Both the position numbers and the translations under genes were made by a program. Of a DNA stretch of 43,179 nucleotides, positions 9,586 through 17,008 are shown one piece after another. The notes beneath the pieces are model-generated. The model did not search any database. It was given only the letters and a program-made list of their open reading frames with translations, and was not told the origin of the DNA. The stretch is from Bacillota bacterium (GTDB taxonomy: Bacteria; Bacillota; Clostridia; Caldicoprobacterales; DTU083): contig JAKPIB010000034.1 in the NCBI GenBank assembly GCA_029549985.1, positions 1 to 43,179 of the forward strand, in the 5' to 3' direction. How positions within the stretch are numbered: the stretch's first letter is position 1; every line of letters begins with the position of its first letter.

Positions 9586-9731
9586 ATCAACATATGTGGA
9601 TAAATAAATGGTTATCCACAGGTTAGCATAAGATATTTTAAATCGAGGGCAAAATAATCCCCATACTTATCAACATTATCCACAGATTTTATCCCGGCTT
9701 TTCCACACGGTATGGATAATTGTCAACAATT
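9584..9731. promoter_or_regulatory. Ectopic DnaA-box cluster between convergent genes
   Basis: Three perfect DnaA boxes (TTATCCACA) lie at 9595-9603 (minus), 9612-9620 and 9676-9684. Single-mismatch boxes are at 9584-9592, 9667-9675 (directly abutting the next), 9699-9707 and 9711-9719 (minus). A 14-base inverted repeat AATTGTCAACAATT (9718-9731) follows and overlaps the end of msrC. murG and msrC converge here, so no promoter is expected, and a role in titrating or reloading DnaA or in origin control is more likely than gene regulation. It is about 12-14 kb from oriC. Confidence 0.8.
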
Positions 9732-10233
9732 AAACAAAGCTTTCAGGCCAGGCCAGGTTTTGGTCAAGGATATCAACGAATTGCGAAAGACCTTTGGCAT
9801 CGTCCTCATCAAACCTGGCCAGCACCGGGCTGTCTATATCGAGCACGCCTATAAGCCTGTCCCTGGCTATGATCGGCACGACGATCTCAGACCTGGAGGC
9901 CTCATCGCAGGCGATATGCCCCGGGAAAAGGTGCACATCCTTCACTACCTGGATCTGCCTTATATCGGCAGCTGTACCGCATACCCCCTTGCCAAGGGGA
10001 ATGCGTACACAAGCGGGCTTCCCGTGAAAGGGACCGAGCACCAGCTCGTTTCCTTTCAATAGGTAGAAACCGGCCCAGTTTATGTTTTCAAGGGTCAGGA
10101 ACAAAAGCGAAGCCGCATTGGCCAGGCCCGCAAGCCAGTCAGGGTCGTCACTGATCAACCCTTTCAGATAAGTGTTCAGCTCCTCGTAGAATACATGCTT
10201 GTCATTGGTTTTGATACCTTGCAGCTTGAACAA
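9730..10233 (-). CDS. msrC: Free methionine-(R)-sulfoxide reductase (GAF domain)
   Basis: Reduces free methionine-R-sulfoxide with thioredoxin-type electrons, repairing oxidised methionine in the cytoplasm. The 167-residue chain is a single GAF domain. The three family cysteines are present at Cys75 (ACVRIP), Cys85 (GKGVCGTAA) and Cys109 (GHIACDEAS), with spacing of 10 and 24 residues, the same as I recall for E. coli MsrC (YebR). Asp132 and Asp134 in VLDIDS are also typical. The start is TTG at 10233, preceded by AGGAAGTGGGG. The gene stands alone, converging with murG. Conserved cysteines make this call stronger than a generic GAF assignment. Confidence 0.92.
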   Translation of the reverse strand: MFKLQGIKTNDKHVFYEELNTYLKGLISDDPDWLAGLANAASLLFLTLENINWAGFYLLKGNELVLGPFHGKPACVRIPLGKGVCGTAADIRQIQVVKDVHLFPGHIACDEASRSEIVVPIIARDRLIGVLDIDSPVLARFDEDDAKGLSQFVDILDQNLAWPESFV

Positions 10234-10342
10234 AACCCCACTTCCTTTGCGCTGAATTTTTGACTGTTGTATGCATATTAGTTGTTATGAAAAAGTATCT
10301 TTATATTCAAAATAGTATCATTGCTGTGTAAAGTCAACAGTA

Positions 10343-10885
10343 TTACCTGCCGCTTAGAAGAAATATGGCAGCAGATATAAAGGATACGGCCAAAGCTATA
10401 AAAGCAAATGCGCCTGCCAGTCTAAGCCGTTTTTCCATGCACTCAAGCCTGCGCCTGTCATGATCGACATCCTCCCGCAATCCGGCACTGCTGCTGTCAA
10501 GCTCTCCTATTTTCCCCTCCAGATCATAGATGGCTCTGCTGATATCCCCCAATCTGGCATTTATCCCCTCCAGATGGTCCCCTATCCGCTTGTCGGCAAA
10601 TGCAAGCAATTCCTTTTGGACTGACAGAAGCATGTCCCTCAGCCTGTGTATGTCCTTCGTGTATGTATCAAGCTCATGGGTCAGGCCGGCAAACTGCTTT
10701 TCATGATCTGCAAGCACAGCCTTCATCTCTGACTCCAGAGCCTTCAGAGCCTCTGATGCCTTTTCGAATTCATGCCTGGCCGATTCCGTCCTCTTTTGAA
10801 GATTTTCGAATATATTGAGGTTGTCATCCAGCCTTTGGAAAACGCTCTGCAACCTTTTATCAAGACCTTCAAAGTCTATGCCCAT
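10343..10885 (-). CDS. Tail-anchored coiled-coil membrane protein of unknown function
   Basis: I do not recognise a family. The 180-residue protein is almost wholly helical and charged, with long coiled-coil stretches at about 8-98 and 104-155. A single hydrophobic segment at about 156-177 ends three residues from the C terminus, so it is probably a tail-anchored inner-membrane protein with a cytoplasmic rod. The ATG at 10885 lies inside the last codons of the upstream helicase gene (10-base overlap), and GGAGGAGG sits a few bases before it, so translation is coupled. This suggests that it works with the helicase, possibly by tethering it to the membrane. That link is inferred from position only. 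Confidence 0.8.
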   Translation of the reverse strand: MGIDFEGLDKRLQSVFQRLDDNLNIFENLQKRTESARHEFEKASEALKALESEMKAVLADHEKQFAGLTHELDTYTKDIHRLRDMLLSVQKELLAFADKRIGDHLEGINARLGDISRAIYDLEGKIGELDSSSAGLREDVDHDRRRLECMEKRLRLAGAFAFIALAVSFISAAIFLLSGR

Positions 10886-13800
10886 AGGCCAACCTCCTCC
10901 AGCCTTCTGCTTATATTTGCCAACTGATGCTCAAGGTATCCCACGGTAACAACGTACCTGATATCGTCATCAGGCAGGCTTGCATACAGCCTCTTGGCAA
11001 GGTCTGAGTCTGTATAGGGCAGGCTGATGTTTTCCATGAGCCGGGCTGCTGCTTCTTTTGCAATATTCAAAGCTTCTGCCAGGATCCCCAGTATCCCGTC
11101 GGCATTGTGCTGCTCATCCAGCAGCTTAAGGCAGGCCAAAAGCTGGTCCGTACCGTATGCCTCCCGGCTGTCCCGCCGTAAGGTGATAATGCCGGCAATA
11201 TACATAGCCTGTGCATTGCCGGGATAGTCCTCAAGATACCTCATAGCCCTTATCTTGACGGCTTCCTGTATGCCTTCCCTGTATGCCTGCTCTATTATCT
11301 CATGGAGCCTGCCATAATCAAACAGGTTTTGGTCAAAGGCCGATCTCAGGCTGTCATACAGGCTTTCTCTGCTGGCTCCTGCAGATGTGCCAAGGGCTCT
11401 TTGGGCACTTATACCCTCTATGTCGCAAAAGCCGCAGCCCTCGGCGTAGTCGGTGCTGTCGCCAAAGTAATTCATGATAAAGTGCCTGCGGCAGACCTTT
11501 GTGTTGCTGACATAGTTCCAAATGCTCTCCAGCATATTGAGCTTCTGCCTTTTGAAGCCCTGCAGCCTGGAAACTATCGATGCGACCGCCCTGTCTATGG
11601 GTGCATCGGTGAACCCCTTGTCAAGCAGGACATGGATCCTGGCTCCCGGATCAGGGTAGTCAAGGATCTTGTAGTCCCTTACTATGGATTCCTTTTGCAG
11701 GTGATAAAGAAACTTCTGGCTCTCAGCCAGGCTGCTTTCATCACAGACAAAATGGAACTCCTTTTTTCCGGTTGCATTTATAATGAGCTTATCGATGAAC
11801 CTGTTCAGGTTCCGCTTCATAACGGACTCTTCCGGGTATTCATCGCATATGAATTTGGCCTGCATGCCGTAATCGCACTTTTTACCGCCAGTATAGCAGC
11901 AAGTCCACCTGTCGGTGCACCTGGGCTGGCCCGTATCCCCCGCCGATGACCTTATGCATTCAGGATGCCGGAGCGATGCCACAAGGACTGCATGGGCGTG
12001 CTCCTGATCCCTGCCGGCACGGCCCGCCTCCTGGTAATAGGCTTCAATGGAGTTGGAATAGCACATATGGACGATGTATCGTATGTCAGGCTTGTCGATC
12101 CCCATGCCGAAGCCCTTGGTAGCAACCAGCAGGGGTATATCCCCCTTGATATACCTGTCCTGGATATCGATCCTGGTATGGTCCGCCAGGCGCGAATGAT
12201 ACCTTTCTACAGGCAGACCCCAGCACTCGATCATGCTCTTTATGTATTCGGTGCCAAAAAACCTGGTGCTGCTGCCTCTGGGATCGGCATATATGGTGAA
12301 AACGATCCCTGACCCTTTTTTGTGCATTTCGTCAGGGCCGGCGCAGGCAAGCAGCTCAGGTATCCTTTGGGTCAAAAGCTTTTTAAGCACTCCATCCTTG
12401 CTTTCCCCGATTTCGACCGTAACTACCTCAAAGCTTATCTCCGGCCTGTCAAAGGAAACAGGCAGTATAACATTTTCCCTGTCGAGCCTGAATATCCCGA
12501 CTATATCATCCAAAACCCTGGGCGAAGCCGTTGCGGTCAGAGCCAGGACAGGAGGATCACCTAAACACTCAACCATGTCTATGATCTTGAGGTAGGACGG
12601 GCGGAAATCATGCCCCCATTCCGAAGCGCAATGGGCCTCATCTATTACAAAATAGTTTATGACATTATCCTTCAGCAGCTCTGCAAGCTCGTCCTGAAAG
12701 CTTTTTATCTGAAGCCTCTCGGGCGACACATAAAGTATTTTTATATATCCTGAACGGAACCGGTCCAAAACCGCATTCCTTTCACCCTTGTTCATTGAGC
12801 TGTCGATATAGTCCGCATGCTCAAAGCCTGCATCCCTGAGATGGTCCACCTGATCCTTCATAAGGGATTTTAGCGGAGAGACCACGATCGAAATGCCGGG
12901 CTTGAGCATAGCCGGCAGCTGGAAGCACAGGGACTTGCCTGCTCCCGTCGGCAGTATGCCCAGGGTACTCATCCCGGCGAAGGCTTTTCTTATGATATCC
13001 ATCTGGCCTTTTCTGAAGCCTTCGAAATTCCAGAACCGTTTCAGTATGAACTTAAGTGAGTTTTCATCAATATCTAGAACATTCAGCCTTTCCCGTATTT
13101 CAAAGCCGGTGAGGTTCACAAGCTCTGAATTTTCCGAGGCAGAGACTATGTTACCCTTTTCCCCTCTTGTCAGCTTGACATTGTGAGCCAGTATGATATC
13201 TCCAAAGCTTAGGCCGCCAACAGAGCATTTGCTCAGATCCAGGCTGTACTTATGGGGCCCGCACGCGCCGTCACAGATATTGAGTCTGCCGCCCGCCTTG
13301 CAGCCGGACACTATGTAAAACCTGCCGGATACTTCCTGATCCTCCTCTGCATCATCAAGCCTGATGCAATCACTGCTCAGGGGGTGACCGATATCGGCAG
13401 CACGGGTCAGTATGACGTACATCCAGTCTTCCGGCTGGTTATGGCTTTTGTCAGGTCCTGCGCCACTGCCATCTCTTTCTGTTTTAAGGCTTTCCAATAG
13501 CCTGCTTTTTATCCTGGGATCCTTTAGGCCTAGTCCGCACCCAAGGCAGCCTTCGCCCGGACCGCATGGTGAAGCTACCCATAGCCCCAGGTCTGCTGCC
13601 TTGTATTTTATGCTGTTGACTGTCAGCCCTCCATGGTCTTTGGCTGAGTCTATCAGCACTATGGCACCCTTGTCTCTAAGGCAGCCGGAAAGCCGGGTGA
13701 GCATTCCATAGCCTTTTACTATCCCGGTGCTTTGCATCATATCCTTTGCTATTATCACATCCCAGGAGCCTTGCAGCCTGATTTCATCCAGGCTTCCCTG

Positions 13801-14289
13801 GAGCAGGCGGTCATTGACGGAAAGCCTGCCTGCATCCCAGCAGCCTTTCAGCCGGGCGTATAAATAGCTGAGGCCGGTCTCCGGATCGAATCCATTGTCG
13901 GTCGATATGTTTATGGTATCCAGGCTGACCTTTTCAATGAAGGGCGTCCCATTGAAAATATTGCTGATATTATCGATCACGGACAAAAAGTCAGCTATGG
14001 CAAAAGCCCCCGCGCAGGGATCAGGGCCTATATACAGCACCTTCAGGCTATCCATGGCTTCGTTCCAGGGGAGCTTGAGCAGGGCAAGCAACACCCTGAG
14101 CATCTCCTTGTGGAAGCCCTCTATCCGGCCTTTGATCCCTTCCCCTCCGGCCTGGCGCCAATCCTCTCCCTCCTGGTTTATCAACATATCCTCCAGGGCG
14201 GCCTCGGCAAAGGTAGAAGCAATGAAGCTGTTGCCGGGAAATATCATGCTTTGAGCTATTTTTGCAGCCAGGGCCCCTTTATCGCCCAT
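10876..14289 (-). CDS. RecQ-like DNA helicase with a degenerate Rsm22-like N-terminal region
   Basis: ATP-dependent superfamily 2 helicase, 1137 residues, about twice a usual RecQ. Residues about 50-370 resemble Rsm22/METTL17-type proteins: a methyltransferase-like start (KVLYIGPDPCAGA, 83-95), a PCGPGEGCLGCG cysteine patch (241-252, Cys242/248/251), further cysteines at 330, 339, 343 and 355, and SFGD at 361-364. The SAM loop is degenerate. The helicase core spans about 405-770: Walker A LPTGAGKS (446-453), DEAH (550-553), TATA (585-588) and QEAGRAGR (753-760). A cysteine-rich insertion (791-805) follows. The RecQ zinc region is CRRHFIMNYFGD ... CGFCD (933, 952, 955), but the usual fourth cysteine is Glu958. 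Residues about 975-1137 are helical, repeat-like. The start is ATG at 14289, with GGGGTG upstream. It lies downstream of gyrA, whose terminator separates them. The helicase call is firm; the N-terminal call is by eye. Confidence 0.88.
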   Translation of the reverse strand: MGDKGALAAKIAQSMIFPGNSFIASTFAEAALEDMLINQEGEDWRQAGGEGIKGRIEGFHKEMLRVLLALLKLPWNEAMDSLKVLYIGPDPCAGAFAIADFLSVIDNISNIFNGTPFIEKVSLDTINISTDNGFDPETGLSYLYARLKGCWDAGRLSVNDRLLQGSLDEIRLQGSWDVIIAKDMMQSTGIVKGYGMLTRLSGCLRDKGAIVLIDSAKDHGGLTVNSIKYKAADLGLWVASPCGPGEGCLGCGLGLKDPRIKSRLLESLKTERDGSGAGPDKSHNQPEDWMYVILTRAADIGHPLSSDCIRLDDAEEDQEVSGRFYIVSGCKAGGRLNICDGACGPHKYSLDLSKCSVGGLSFGDIILAHNVKLTRGEKGNIVSASENSELVNLTGFEIRERLNVLDIDENSLKFILKRFWNFEGFRKGQMDIIRKAFAGMSTLGILPTGAGKSLCFQLPAMLKPGISIVVSPLKSLMKDQVDHLRDAGFEHADYIDSSMNKGERNAVLDRFRSGYIKILYVSPERLQIKSFQDELAELLKDNVINYFVIDEAHCASEWGHDFRPSYLKIIDMVECLGDPPVLALTATASPRVLDDIVGIFRLDRENVILPVSFDRPEISFEVVTVEIGESKDGVLKKLLTQRIPELLACAGPDEMHKKGSGIVFTIYADPRGSSTRFFGTEYIKSMIECWGLPVERYHSRLADHTRIDIQDRYIKGDIPLLVATKGFGMGIDKPDIRYIVHMCYSNSIEAYYQEAGRAGRDQEHAHAVLVASLRHPECIRSSAGDTGQPRCTDRWTCCYTGGKKCDYGMQAKFICDEYPEESVMKRNLNRFIDKLIINATGKKEFHFVCDESSLAESQKFLYHLQKESIVRDYKILDYPDPGARIHVLLDKGFTDAPIDRAVASIVSRLQGFKRQKLNMLESIWNYVSNTKVCRRHFIMNYFGDSTDYAEGCGFCDIEGISAQRALGTSAGASRESLYDSLRSAFDQNLFDYGRLHEIIEQAYREGIQEAVKIRAMRYLEDYPGNAQAMYIAGIITLRRDSREAYGTDQLLACLKLLDEQHNADGILGILAEALNIAKEAAARLMENISLPYTDSDLAKRLYASLPDDDIRYVVTVGYLEHQLANISRRLEEVGLWA

Positions 14290-14390
14290 ATCAGCACCCC
14301 GATACAGGAAATAGATGCAGACATACAGCTGAAATAATCTATGCTACTGCTCGTATATATAGAGTTTCTATTGAAGAATGCTAATTCCTG

Positions 14391-14424
14391 CAAAAAAAGA
14401 GACGATGCTTGTCTGCTCGCCTCT
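14391..14424 (-). terminator. Intrinsic terminator of the dnaA-gyrA block
   Basis: Read on the minus strand, an 8-bp stem with one G-U pair (14417-14424 with 14398-14405) closes an 11-base loop and is followed by seven T residues (14392-14398). It lies 17 bases beyond the gyrA stop. Confidence 0.8.
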
Positions 14425-14440
14425 TCCATTTTATATCATA

Positions 14441-17008
14441 TTATTCATCGATGTCTTCGGTTTCGCTCAGGGCCCTTTCGATCAGCTTCTCAAGGGACTC
14501 ATCGTTGTATGCGGATTTTTTGCCCTCATTTCTTTCATATGAAGCATTTTCCCCGTTGTCCTGATCGGCATCCTCGTCATCTTCTCTTTTTGCCTTTGCC
14601 ACTGAGATTATCCTGCAGTCCCCGTCCACCTTCATCAGGGTCACCCCCTGGGTGTTGCGGCTCATGGTGGATATCTCGTCCGTCCTGATCCGTATGATCA
14701 CGCCCTCGGAGTTGATGATCATCAGGTCCTCTTCGCCGGTGACGACCTTCAGGGCTGCAAGGTCACCTGTCTTCTCGGTTATGTTCATCGTGATGATCCC
14801 TTTTCCGCCCCTGGACTGAAGCCTGTACTCCGAGGCCGGAGTCCGCTTTCCGTAGCCCTTTTCACTGACGGTGAGCACTTCCGCATCTTCATTGAAGCGC
14901 TCTGCATCTATGACATAGTCATCATCATCAATGGTCATACCCTTGACGCCCATGGCTGCTCTGCCCATAGGCCTTACATCGCTCTCACTGTACCTTATCG
15001 ACATGCCCTTGCGAGAGGCCATTATGACTTCATGCCTGCCGTCGGTCTGGATGACTCTGATCAGCTCGTCACCTTCCTTGAGGGTTATGGCCATTATACC
15101 ACCCTTGCGTATCCTTGAAAACTCATTCAGGGGCGTTTTCTTCACAAGGCCGCTGCGGGTGACCATAAAGAGATACCTGTCTTCTTCGAAGTCATCTTCC
15201 CTGACCGGTATGCATGCCTGGATCCTTTCGCCCGGGTCAAGCTGCATGAGGTTTATTATGGCCGTGCCCTTGGCGTTCCTGCCCGCCTCCGGTATCTCAT
15301 AGGCCTTGAGCTCGTAAGCCTTGCCTAATGAAGTGAAGAACATGAGCCTGTTATGGGTGGATGTTATGAATATATCCTCCACGAAGTCCTCTTCCCTGGT
15401 CTGCAGGCCGGTTATGCCCCTGCCGCCCCTGTGCTGGCTCTTGTATGTAGATAAAGGCATGCGTTTTACATACCCATAATGGGTCAGGGTGATGACCACA
15501 TCATGCTCGTCTATGAGGTCCTCGAGCTCGATCTCATCCTCCATAGGCATGAGCTGGGTCCTTCTGGGGTCATTGTACTTGTTCTTTATAGCCAGGAGCT
15601 CATCCTTGATGATGCTCTTGAGCAGGGATTCGTTTGCTAGGACTTCCTTCAGGTATGCTATGGTCTTTTTGATCTCTGCATACTCTTCCTCGATTTTTTC
15701 ACGCTCGAGGCCTGTCAGCCTTTGCAGCCTCATATCAAGTATTGCCTGGGCTTGTATCTCAGTCAGGCCGAAGTTGGCAATAAGGCCTTCCTTGGCCGCT
15801 GCGACCGTCCTGGAGCTTCGGATGAGGGAGATCACTGCGTCTATATTGTCAAGGGCAATTATGAGGCCTTCCAATATATGAGCCCTGGCCTCTGCCTTGG
15901 AAAGGTCATATTTTGTCCGCCTGGTTACTACATCCCTCTGGTGCTCAAGGTAATAATAAAGCATATCCCTTATATTCAATACCTTGGGCTCATTGTCGAC
16001 CAAGGCCAGCATGATGACCCCGAAGGTCACCTGCATCTGGGTGTGCTTAAAGAGGTAGTTGAGCACGATGTTGGGATTGACATCCTTTTTGATCTCAATG
16101 ACTATCCGCATGCCGCTGCGGTCGGATTCATCCCTGATATCCGAAATGCCGTCCAGCCTTTTTTCCTTGACCAGGTCGGCAATCTTCTCTATAAGGCGGG
16201 CCTTGTTGACCTGGTACGGTATCTCAGTGACGATTATCCTTGAACGGTTGCCGGGCATCTCTTCGACCTCGGTCTTTGCCCTGACCAGGATCCGGCCCCT
16301 GCCTGTCCTGTATGCCTCCCGGATACCGTCCATACCGAGTATCATAGCCCCTGTCGGGAAATCAGGGCCTTTTATGACCTTGGCAATATCATCAGGCGTT
16401 GCATCGGGATCGTCGATCAGCATCACGACACCGTCTATCACCTCACCCAGATTGTGGGGCGGTATATTGGTGGCCATGCCTACGGCTATGCCTGATGCCC
16501 CGTTGACCAGGAGGTTGGGGAACCTGGAAGGCAATACGACCGGTTCCTTCATCGTCTCATCGAAGTTTGGCATGAAGTCAACGGTTTCCTTGTTCAGGTC
16601 CGCCAGCATTTCCATGGCGATCCTGGTCATGCGGGCCTCTGTGTAACGCATGGCAGCTGCCGGGTCGCCATCTATGGACCCGAAGTTGCCATGCCCGTCG
16701 ACCAGGGGATAGCGGATCGAAAAGTCCTGGGCCATCCGCACCATGGCGTCGTATACGGCGCTGTCGCCATGGGGATGGTATTTACCCAGCACATCACCGA
16801 CGATCCTGGCTGACTTCCTGTAAGGCTTGTCAGGCGTCAGTCCCAGCTCGGTCATGGAATAGAGTATGCGCCTGTGCACGGGCTTCAAGCCATCCCTGAC
16901 ATCGGGGAGGGCACGGCCTACTATTACGCTCATGGCATACTCAATATAGGATTTTTTCATTTCGGATTCTATGTTGACATCCAATATTCTTTCTTCATTA
17001 ATGTCCAT
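14441..17008 (-). CDS. gyrA: DNA gyrase subunit A
   Basis: Breakage-and-reunion subunit of gyrase, which with GyrB introduces negative supercoils using ATP. The 855-residue protein has the winged-helix/tower core with catalytic Tyr122 in [10 protein letters not shown]. The quinolone-determining region is [17 protein letters not shown], with Ser83 and Asp87 in the wild-type (sensitive) form by E. coli numbering. The GyrA box appears as QHRGGRG at 525-531, so it is a true gyrase and not topoisomerase IV. C-terminal beta-pinwheel blades follow, then an acidic, low-complexity tail of about 50 residues (from about 805). AAAGGGG precedes the ATG. It lies 15 bases after gyrB in the same operon. Confidence 0.98.

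What the first reader, a model, noticed from the sequence alone, without database searches (positions are those of the whole stretch)
10343..14289. Translationally coupled pair: giant RecQ-like helicase plus tail-anchored coiled-coil protein
A 1137-residue helicase overlaps by ten bases with a 180-residue rod-like protein that ends in a membrane helix. The latter has no recognisable family. A helicase coupled to a membrane tether, downstream of gyrA, suggests a membrane-linked DNA or RNA remodelling unit. Its partners and role are unknown to me.
Basis: partly seen in the sequence, partly recalled or inferred. Interest (0 to 1): 0.75.

Follow-up and report, generated by a model that had tools for sequence, protein, structure and literature searches.

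The report
RecQ-type helicase with membrane-anchored partner
Next to the DNA gyrase gene lies a large RecQ-type DNA helicase whose gene overlaps that of a rod-like protein ending in a membrane anchor; the same two-gene pair occurs on plasmids and chromosomes of five other phyla, often with a nuclease or toxin-like domain added to the helicase, so this looks like a widespread membrane-tethered helicase module, probably of defence origin, that has settled in a housekeeping locus here.

Summary
In detail: a 1137-aa RecQ-type helicase (minus strand, 10876-14289) overlaps by 10 nt a 180-aa tail-anchored rod-like protein (10343-10885), downstream of gyrA. The pairing is real and deep. In a helicase-core tree, 11 helicases with an adjacent coil gene plus one more form a clade apart from ordinary RecQ (99/97). 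Ten of the 11 (Bacillota, Thermomicrobiota, Deinococcota, Rhodothermota, Bacteroidota, E. coli plasmids) have a tail-anchored partner; one partner lacks the anchor. The twelfth helicase ends in its own hydrophobic helix. None of 16 canonical RecQ loci has such a neighbour. The helicase N-terminus is a degenerate Rsm22/METTL17-like methyltransferase that kept its metal-ligand cysteines but lost the SAM motif. Relatives carry an intact methyltransferase, a DUF559-like nuclease, or HAD + phosphoribosyltransferase + nuclease beside a ShosA-type DprA, which points to a defence or toxin-antitoxin origin. In the window's lineage the pair sits between gyrA and msrC, and ordinary RecQ was not found in those genomes. 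Most likely the small protein holds the helicase at the membrane; tethering and function are inferred, not shown. The tether idea is supported; 'RNA remodelling' is not.

The parts
10876..14289 (-). RecQ-clade helicase gene, 1137 aa
13090..14289 (-). N-terminal domain (residues ~1-400): degenerate Rsm22/METTL17-like methyltransferase; SAM motif I replaced by LYIGPDP, cysteines C242, C248, C251 (and C339) kept
11965..13080 (-). RecQ ATPase/helicase core (residues 404-775), motif II DEAHCASEWGHDFRP
11419..11559 (-). RecQ zinc-binding subdomain (residues 911-957)
   Evidence: PF16124 E=2.5e-9
10879..11391 (-). C-terminal all-helical domain (residues ~967-1137) with the conserved KIRAMRYLEDYPDN motif
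10876..10885 (-). 10-nt overlap of helicase stop and partner start, with an internal Shine-Dalgarno GGAGGAGG just upstream
10343..10885 (-). partner gene: 180-aa helical rod with C-terminal membrane anchor
10355..10426 (-). tail anchor (hydrophobic residues ~154-177), preceded by basic residues, tail SGR
9730..10233 (-). neighbour msrC-like GAF gene (free-Met sulfoxide reductase type): one border of the insertion site in sister genera
14441..17008 (-). gyrA: other border of the insertion site

Best explanation
The pair encodes a membrane-tethered RecQ-clade helicase. The helicase (probably through its C-terminal helical domain) binds the rod-like partner, whose tail anchor sits in the cytoplasmic membrane with the rod inside the cell; translational coupling keeps the two in step. 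Across phyla the same module carries interchangeable N-terminal effectors (methyltransferase, DUF559-like nuclease, HAD + phosphoribosyltransferase + nuclease) and sits on plasmids or beside recombinases, so the parent system most likely acts against foreign DNA, perhaps as it enters at the membrane. In the window's lineage the effector has decayed to a cysteine-bearing (probably Fe-S) pseudo-methyltransferase, the cassette is fixed between gyrA and msrC, and no ordinary RecQ was found, so here it probably works as the cell's RecQ. Shown by sequence: the pairing, the anchor profile, the clade, the degenerate domain, the insertion, and no ordinary RecQ detected in the assemblies. Inferred: physical interaction, membrane location, defence origin, take-over of RecQ duties.
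For: Clade: 11 pair helicases + G090 separate from 14 other RecQs, support 99/97. Partner: 10 of 11 coils tail-anchored by one rule, against 0 of 16 canonical RecQ loci; relatives were found through the helicase, not the partner. G090: helicase of the clade with its own C-terminal hydrophobic helix. Overlap or near-overlap conserved: 10, 4, 14, 17, 4, 4, 4, 4 nt and a 1-nt gap. N-domain: G112 copy hits Rsm22 E=3.6e-7; profile match to true Rsm22s 95%, E=4e-8; yeast Rsm22 chains rank 3-5 by fold with the highest TM among the listed hits; three cysteines invariant in 12 sequences. Defence links: DUF559-like nuclease; in E. coli DprA = ShosA E=7e-68, ShosT-like PRTase, and a DpdF model matching residues 471-1471; tyrosine recombinases. 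Insertion and missing RecQ.
Against: No biochemical, localisation or interaction data. The Deinococcus partner lacks the anchor, Salinibacter has a 102-nt gap, and in Thermus a transposase gene lies between the two. The window locus has no DprA, nuclease, PRTase or defence island around it. Absence of RecQ rests on draft assemblies (97, 91 and 86% complete). The full-length model was too poor to use (pLDDT 57). The Rsm22-like model gives only TM 0.45. The N-domain of the nuclease-bearing plasmid helicases did not match the window's N-domain significantly (5.7%), so one origin of that domain across the clade is not shown.
Confidence: 0.6

Rival explanations
1. The small protein is mainly an inhibitor or antitoxin of the helicase (as RqlI restrains RqlH), and membrane location is incidental.
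For: Helicase relatives sit with TA/defence genes; overlapping two-gene operons are typical of TA pairs.
Against: The anchor is kept in 10 of 11 partners and is on the helicase itself in G090; in E. coli the antitoxin slot is already filled by a ShosA-type DprA; the partner shows nothing DprA-like.
Confidence: 0.17
2. It is an active defence system in this organism, not a domesticated RecQ.
For: Relatives on plasmids and mobile DNA with nuclease and PRTase domains; weaker constraint than neighbours (dN/dS 0.20-0.31 versus 0.06 for gyrA and recF).
Against: No recognisable effector left: SAM motif lost, no nuclease hit; fixed beside gyrA in two genera; ordinary RecQ not found.
Confidence: 0.25
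3. The Rsm22-like domain makes it an RNA or ribosome-assembly helicase at the membrane.
For: METTL17/Rsm22 binds small-subunit rRNA with an Fe4S4 cluster (PMC11046306); no Rsm22 hit in the window's own family of genomes.
Against: RecQ core and zinc domain are DNA-helicase types; relatives join it to DNA nuclease and DprA; Rsm22 is also absent from sister genera that lack the pair.
Confidence: 0.06
4. The coupling is a chance operon of two unrelated genes.
For: Overlapping unrelated genes are common in bacteria (general knowledge).
Against: Conserved pairing over several phyla with matching partner architecture.
Confidence: 0.02

Closest known systems
Canonical RecQ (TIGR01389/TIGR00614)
   Same: SF2 RecQ core and RecQ zinc-binding subdomain; passes TIGR00614 (310 vs cut-off 220)
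   Different: Fails the RecQ equivalog cut-off (345 vs 640), no HRDC hit, long N- and C-terminal domains, separate clade, coupled anchor gene
Rsm22 / METTL17
   Same: N-domain fold and cysteine pattern; SAM motif lost as in yeast Rsm22 (PMC11046306)
   Different: Fused to a helicase; no Pfam Rsm22 hit for the window protein itself
RqlHI, PsyrTA, ShosTA
   Same: RecQ-like helicase and/or PRTase with a DprA-like partner, as in the E. coli relative of this clade
   Different: The window pair has neither PRTase nor DprA; the RqlHI paper's text does not mention 'transmembrane' or 'coiled'
DpdF of the Dpd (7-deazapurine DNA) system, as modelled in PADLOC
   Same: PADLOC model PDLC02868 aligns over residues 471-1471 of the E. 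coli relative
   Different: Window helicase matches DpdF models only over the RecQ core; NCBIfam DpdF cut-off not met (176 vs 550)

Membership tests
RecQ-family helicase | RecQ-type SF2 core | tested here: met
   TIGR00614 310 bits over cut-off 219.8; PDB RecQ hits
RecQ-family helicase | RecQ zinc-binding subdomain | tested here: met
   PF16124 38.1 bits over 25
Canonical RecQ equivalog | TIGR01389 cut-off | tested here: not met
   345.5 vs 640.2
Canonical RecQ equivalog | C-terminal HRDC domain | tested here: not met
   no HRDC hit at E<=1
Rsm22/METTL17 | Pfam PF09243 | tested here: not met
   no hit for P0001; met by the G112 relative, 30.3 vs 23
Rsm22/METTL17 | SAM-binding motif I | tested here: not met
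   LYIGPDP in place of DxGxGxG; also lost in yeast Rsm22
Rsm22/METTL17 | four cluster cysteines | tested here: met
   C242, C248, C251 invariant in 12 sequences; the fourth, C339 in ICDG, matched to LCT of Rsm22 by eye only
Rsm22/METTL17 | bound Fe4S4 cluster | not testable with these tools
   needs purified protein
RqlHI / PsyrTA / ShosTA | DprA-like partner gene | tested here: not met
   window neighbours are gyrA and msrC; met in the E. coli relative
RqlHI / PsyrTA / ShosTA | phosphoribosyltransferase domain | tested here: not met
   no PRTase hit in P0001
Dpd system (DpdF) | DpdF equivalog cut-off NF041063 | tested here: not met
   175.9 vs 550
RecQ + tail-anchored rod module (this report) | adjacent gene for a helical protein with a single C-terminal hydrophobic helix | tested here: met
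RecQ + tail-anchored rod module (this report) | helicase bound to the membrane through the partner | not testable with these tools
   needs fractionation and pull-down

The most novel reading that the evidence does not exclude
A previously undescribed, cross-phylum immune module in which a RecQ helicase with exchangeable N-terminal effectors is held at the membrane by a dedicated tail-anchored rod so that it meets foreign DNA at the point of entry; in the window's lineage it lost its effector and took over the duties of RecQ.
Probability: 0.35. Interest if true: 0.85.

Novelty: new variant of a known kind. Interest (0 to 1): 0.62.

Why it matters
RecQ helicases are usually thought of as soluble repair enzymes. 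A clade whose members nearly all come with a membrane anchor, in several phyla and often with nuclease or phosphoribosyltransferase parts, would link RecQ-type toxin/defence systems (RqlHI, PsyrTA, ShosTA) to the cell membrane and give a testable idea of where they act. The window's lineage would be a case of such a module becoming a housekeeping gene, with an Fe-S pseudo-methyltransferase as a relic or regulator.

Tried and rejected
Full-length structure prediction: pLDDT 57, not used. Searches of plasmids, phages and viral contigs with the N-domain or helicases of the window and G112: no relative with the N-domain. Degenerate DNA patterns in viral contigs gave no relatives by tblastn. Phylum-wide search with the N-domain gave only weak short hits outside the window's own genome. 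Papers: none joins DUF1848 with helicase; Rsm22 with RecQ only in an unrelated yeast paper; none on RecQ with an anti-phage membrane coil. Global heptad periodicity of the rod: not significant. Common origin of the window N-domain and the N-domain of nuclease-bearing relatives: not significant by hhalign, though similar by eye; left open. PADLOC 'DpdF' label considered and rejected for the window protein: only the RecQ core matches.
Full report
Observation. Both genes are present as described, on the minus strand: a 1137-aa helicase (10876-14289) and a 180-aa protein (10343-10885) that overlap by ten bases. A GGAGGAGG ribosome-binding site lies inside the end of the helicase gene, 8 nt before the partner's ATG, so translational coupling is plausible. 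The helicase has a RecQ-type core at 404-775, a RecQ zinc-binding part at 911-957 and no HRDC hit; it passes the RecQ subfamily cut-off of NCBIfam but not the RecQ equivalog cut-off. The partner has one hydrophobic helix next to its C-terminus and is the only one of 32 window genes with that profile. It is helix-rich and low in proline and glycine; a simple global heptad test did not reach significance, so I call it a helical rod, probably a coiled coil.

Close relatives. The pair occurs in the other genome of the genus (81% and 67% identity) and in a second genus of the family (helicase 48%, partner 30%), each time overlapping (4 and 14 nt). In the second genus the helicase is cut by a contig end, so its join is inferred from matching ends on two contigs. 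Domain-wise dN/dS against the sister genome is 0.11-0.32 for every part of the helicase and 0.31 for the partner, so all parts are under purifying selection, though more weakly than gyrA and recF (0.06).

The locus. In sister genera gyrA is followed by ilvE, often a thiol peroxidase gene, and then msrC. In the genus of G006 the pair lies between ilvE and msrC; in the window's genus between gyrA and msrC. The pair is therefore an insertion in, or was lost outside, this lineage. The three genomes with the pair gave no other RecQ match, while nearly all sister genomes have an ordinary RecQ of about 500 aa. The assemblies are 97, 91 and 86% complete, so this is suggestive, not proof.

The N-terminal domain. 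It has no Pfam hit in the window protein. A more distant full-length relative in another family (G112, 36% identical over the whole length) keeps an intact SAM motif (LDVGSGVG) there and matches Pfam Rsm22 (E=3.6e-7, over the cut-off). Profile comparison with true Rsm22 proteins from the same order gives 95% probability (E=4e-8) with G112 included and 42% without it; against free-standing methyltransferases of G022 and G019 it gives 89% for the window lineage alone. In a 12-sequence alignment P241, C242, C248 and C251 are invariant, while the SAM motif is replaced by LYIGPDP in all three members of the window lineage. A model of the domain (pLDDT 70, pTM 0.76) matches methyltransferase folds, with yeast Rsm22 at ranks 3-5 and the highest query TM-score among the listed hits (0.42-0.46). 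In METTL17 four cysteines bind an Fe4S4 cluster, and the SAM motif is the less conserved feature (PMC11046306). The window domain is thus best read as an Rsm22-like pseudo-methyltransferase, probably with an Fe-S cluster.

Distant relatives. Searching with the helicase, not with the partner, led to: G112 (helicase, tail-anchored partner, then a DUF1848 gene, on a contig with three tyrosine recombinases); G090, whose 603-aa helicase has no N-domain and no partner but ends in its own hydrophobic helix; Thermomicrobium roseum (1141 aa, partner of 213 aa, 17-nt overlap); Thermus thermophilus plasmid pAA1-1b (1185 aa; the partner lies beyond a transposase gene); Rhodothermus marinus (1243 aa, 4-nt overlap); Salinibacter ruber (1313 aa, 102-nt gap); Haliscomenobacter hydrossis (1476 aa, 4-nt overlap); Deinococcus wulumuqiensis (1163 aa, 4-nt overlap, partner without anchor); and E. 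coli plasmid pLAO18 (1558 aa, 4-nt overlap). A maximum-likelihood tree of the helicase cores puts these and the window's helicase in one clade (99/97) apart from 14 other RecQs. The E. coli row has a long branch, so its exact place in the clade is unsure. Ten of 11 partners meet one tail-anchor rule, against none of 16 canonical RecQ loci. The rods are too simple and divergent for a convincing sequence alignment; their kinship rests on position, size, composition and anchor.

What the relatives carry. Rhodothermus has a significant DUF559-type nuclease hit (E=3.6e-6, over the cut-off); Salinibacter and Thermus weaker ones. The E. coli protein has, by sequence, HAD-like and phosphoribosyltransferase-like parts (ShosT-like hit E=1.5e-7) and a restriction-enzyme-like hit; the gene before it is a ShosA-type DprA (E=7e-68), and one PADLOC 'DpdF' model matches residues 471-1471. 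The E. coli trio is in 7 of 5426 complete E. coli genomes, on four plasmids and three chromosomes, twice with an IS element inside the matched stretch. DprA-like proteins act as antitoxins in shosTA, syrTA and rqlHI, and DprA + PRTase protects against phages (PMC9122126); RqlH is genotoxic through its PRTase domain unless RqlI is present (PMC4670107). I infer that the clade is of conflict/defence origin.

Mechanism. The most economical reading is a helicase held at the membrane by a dedicated tail-anchored rod. For: near-universal pairing in the clade, translational overlap, and the G090 variant with the anchor on the helicase itself. Basic residues before the anchor and a tail of a few residues predict the rod in the cytoplasm. 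In mobile members the tether would place a nuclease- or PRTase-bearing helicase where foreign DNA arrives; this step is inference. In the window's lineage no working effector can be recognised, the locus is chromosomal and stable, and no ordinary RecQ was found, so I favour a domesticated, membrane-linked RecQ. Binding between the two proteins, membrane location and function were not tested.

Comparison and novelty. It is a RecQ-family helicase, but not canonical RecQ; its N-domain resembles Rsm22 without passing the Pfam test; it is not RqlHI, PsyrTA, ShosTA or Dpd by their defining features, though its E. coli kin overlap with them. Searches of the open-access library found no description of the pair; subscription papers and preprints were not searchable, so prior description cannot be excluded. 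I rate it a new variant of a known kind.

Noticed in passing
L131:7832-9643 (G090): A RecQ of the same clade, without N-domain or partner gene, ends in its own hydrophobic helix; the next gene is a calcineurin-like phosphoesterase.
   Followed up: yes
L139:2630-8774 (E. coli plasmid pLAO18): DprA (ShosA-type) + 1558-aa HAD-PRTase-nuclease-RecQ protein + 162-aa tail-anchored rod, in 7 of 5426 complete E. coli genomes, sometimes interrupted by IS1 or IS5; candidate defence system with a membrane part.
   Followed up: partly
L056:1391-8449 (G022) and L086:6217-10422 (G019): Operons of TPR protein + Rsm22-like methyltransferase + DUF1848 protein, in G022 also a PLD-type protein, without a helicase: the methyltransferase module is reused.
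   Followed up: partly
L087:8246-10401 (window's own genome, contig C21): DUF1848 gene (C-terminal CxxxCxxC, radical-SAM-like) directly after ogt and an alkA-like glycosylase gene, which suggests a DNA-repair role for DUF1848.
   Followed up: no
L055:224-3111 (G112): Three consecutive tyrosine recombinase genes, resembling the trio of Tn554-type elements, about 2 kb from the methyltransferase-RecQ, rod and DUF1848 genes.
   Followed up: no
L132:5352-7304 (Thermus pAA1-1b): A transposase gene separates the helicase from its rod-like tail-anchored partner.
   Followed up: partly
L135:1-7645 (Deinococcus pDrdI): Helicase and anchor-less rod follow, with 4-nt overlaps, another helicase whose C-terminus looks like a phosphoribosyltransferase; a HAD hydrolase gene follows.
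   Followed up: no
window 9730-17008 and L109-L115: The stretch between gyrA and msrC is a variable site within the family: ilvE, thiol peroxidase or the helicase pair.
   Followed up: yes
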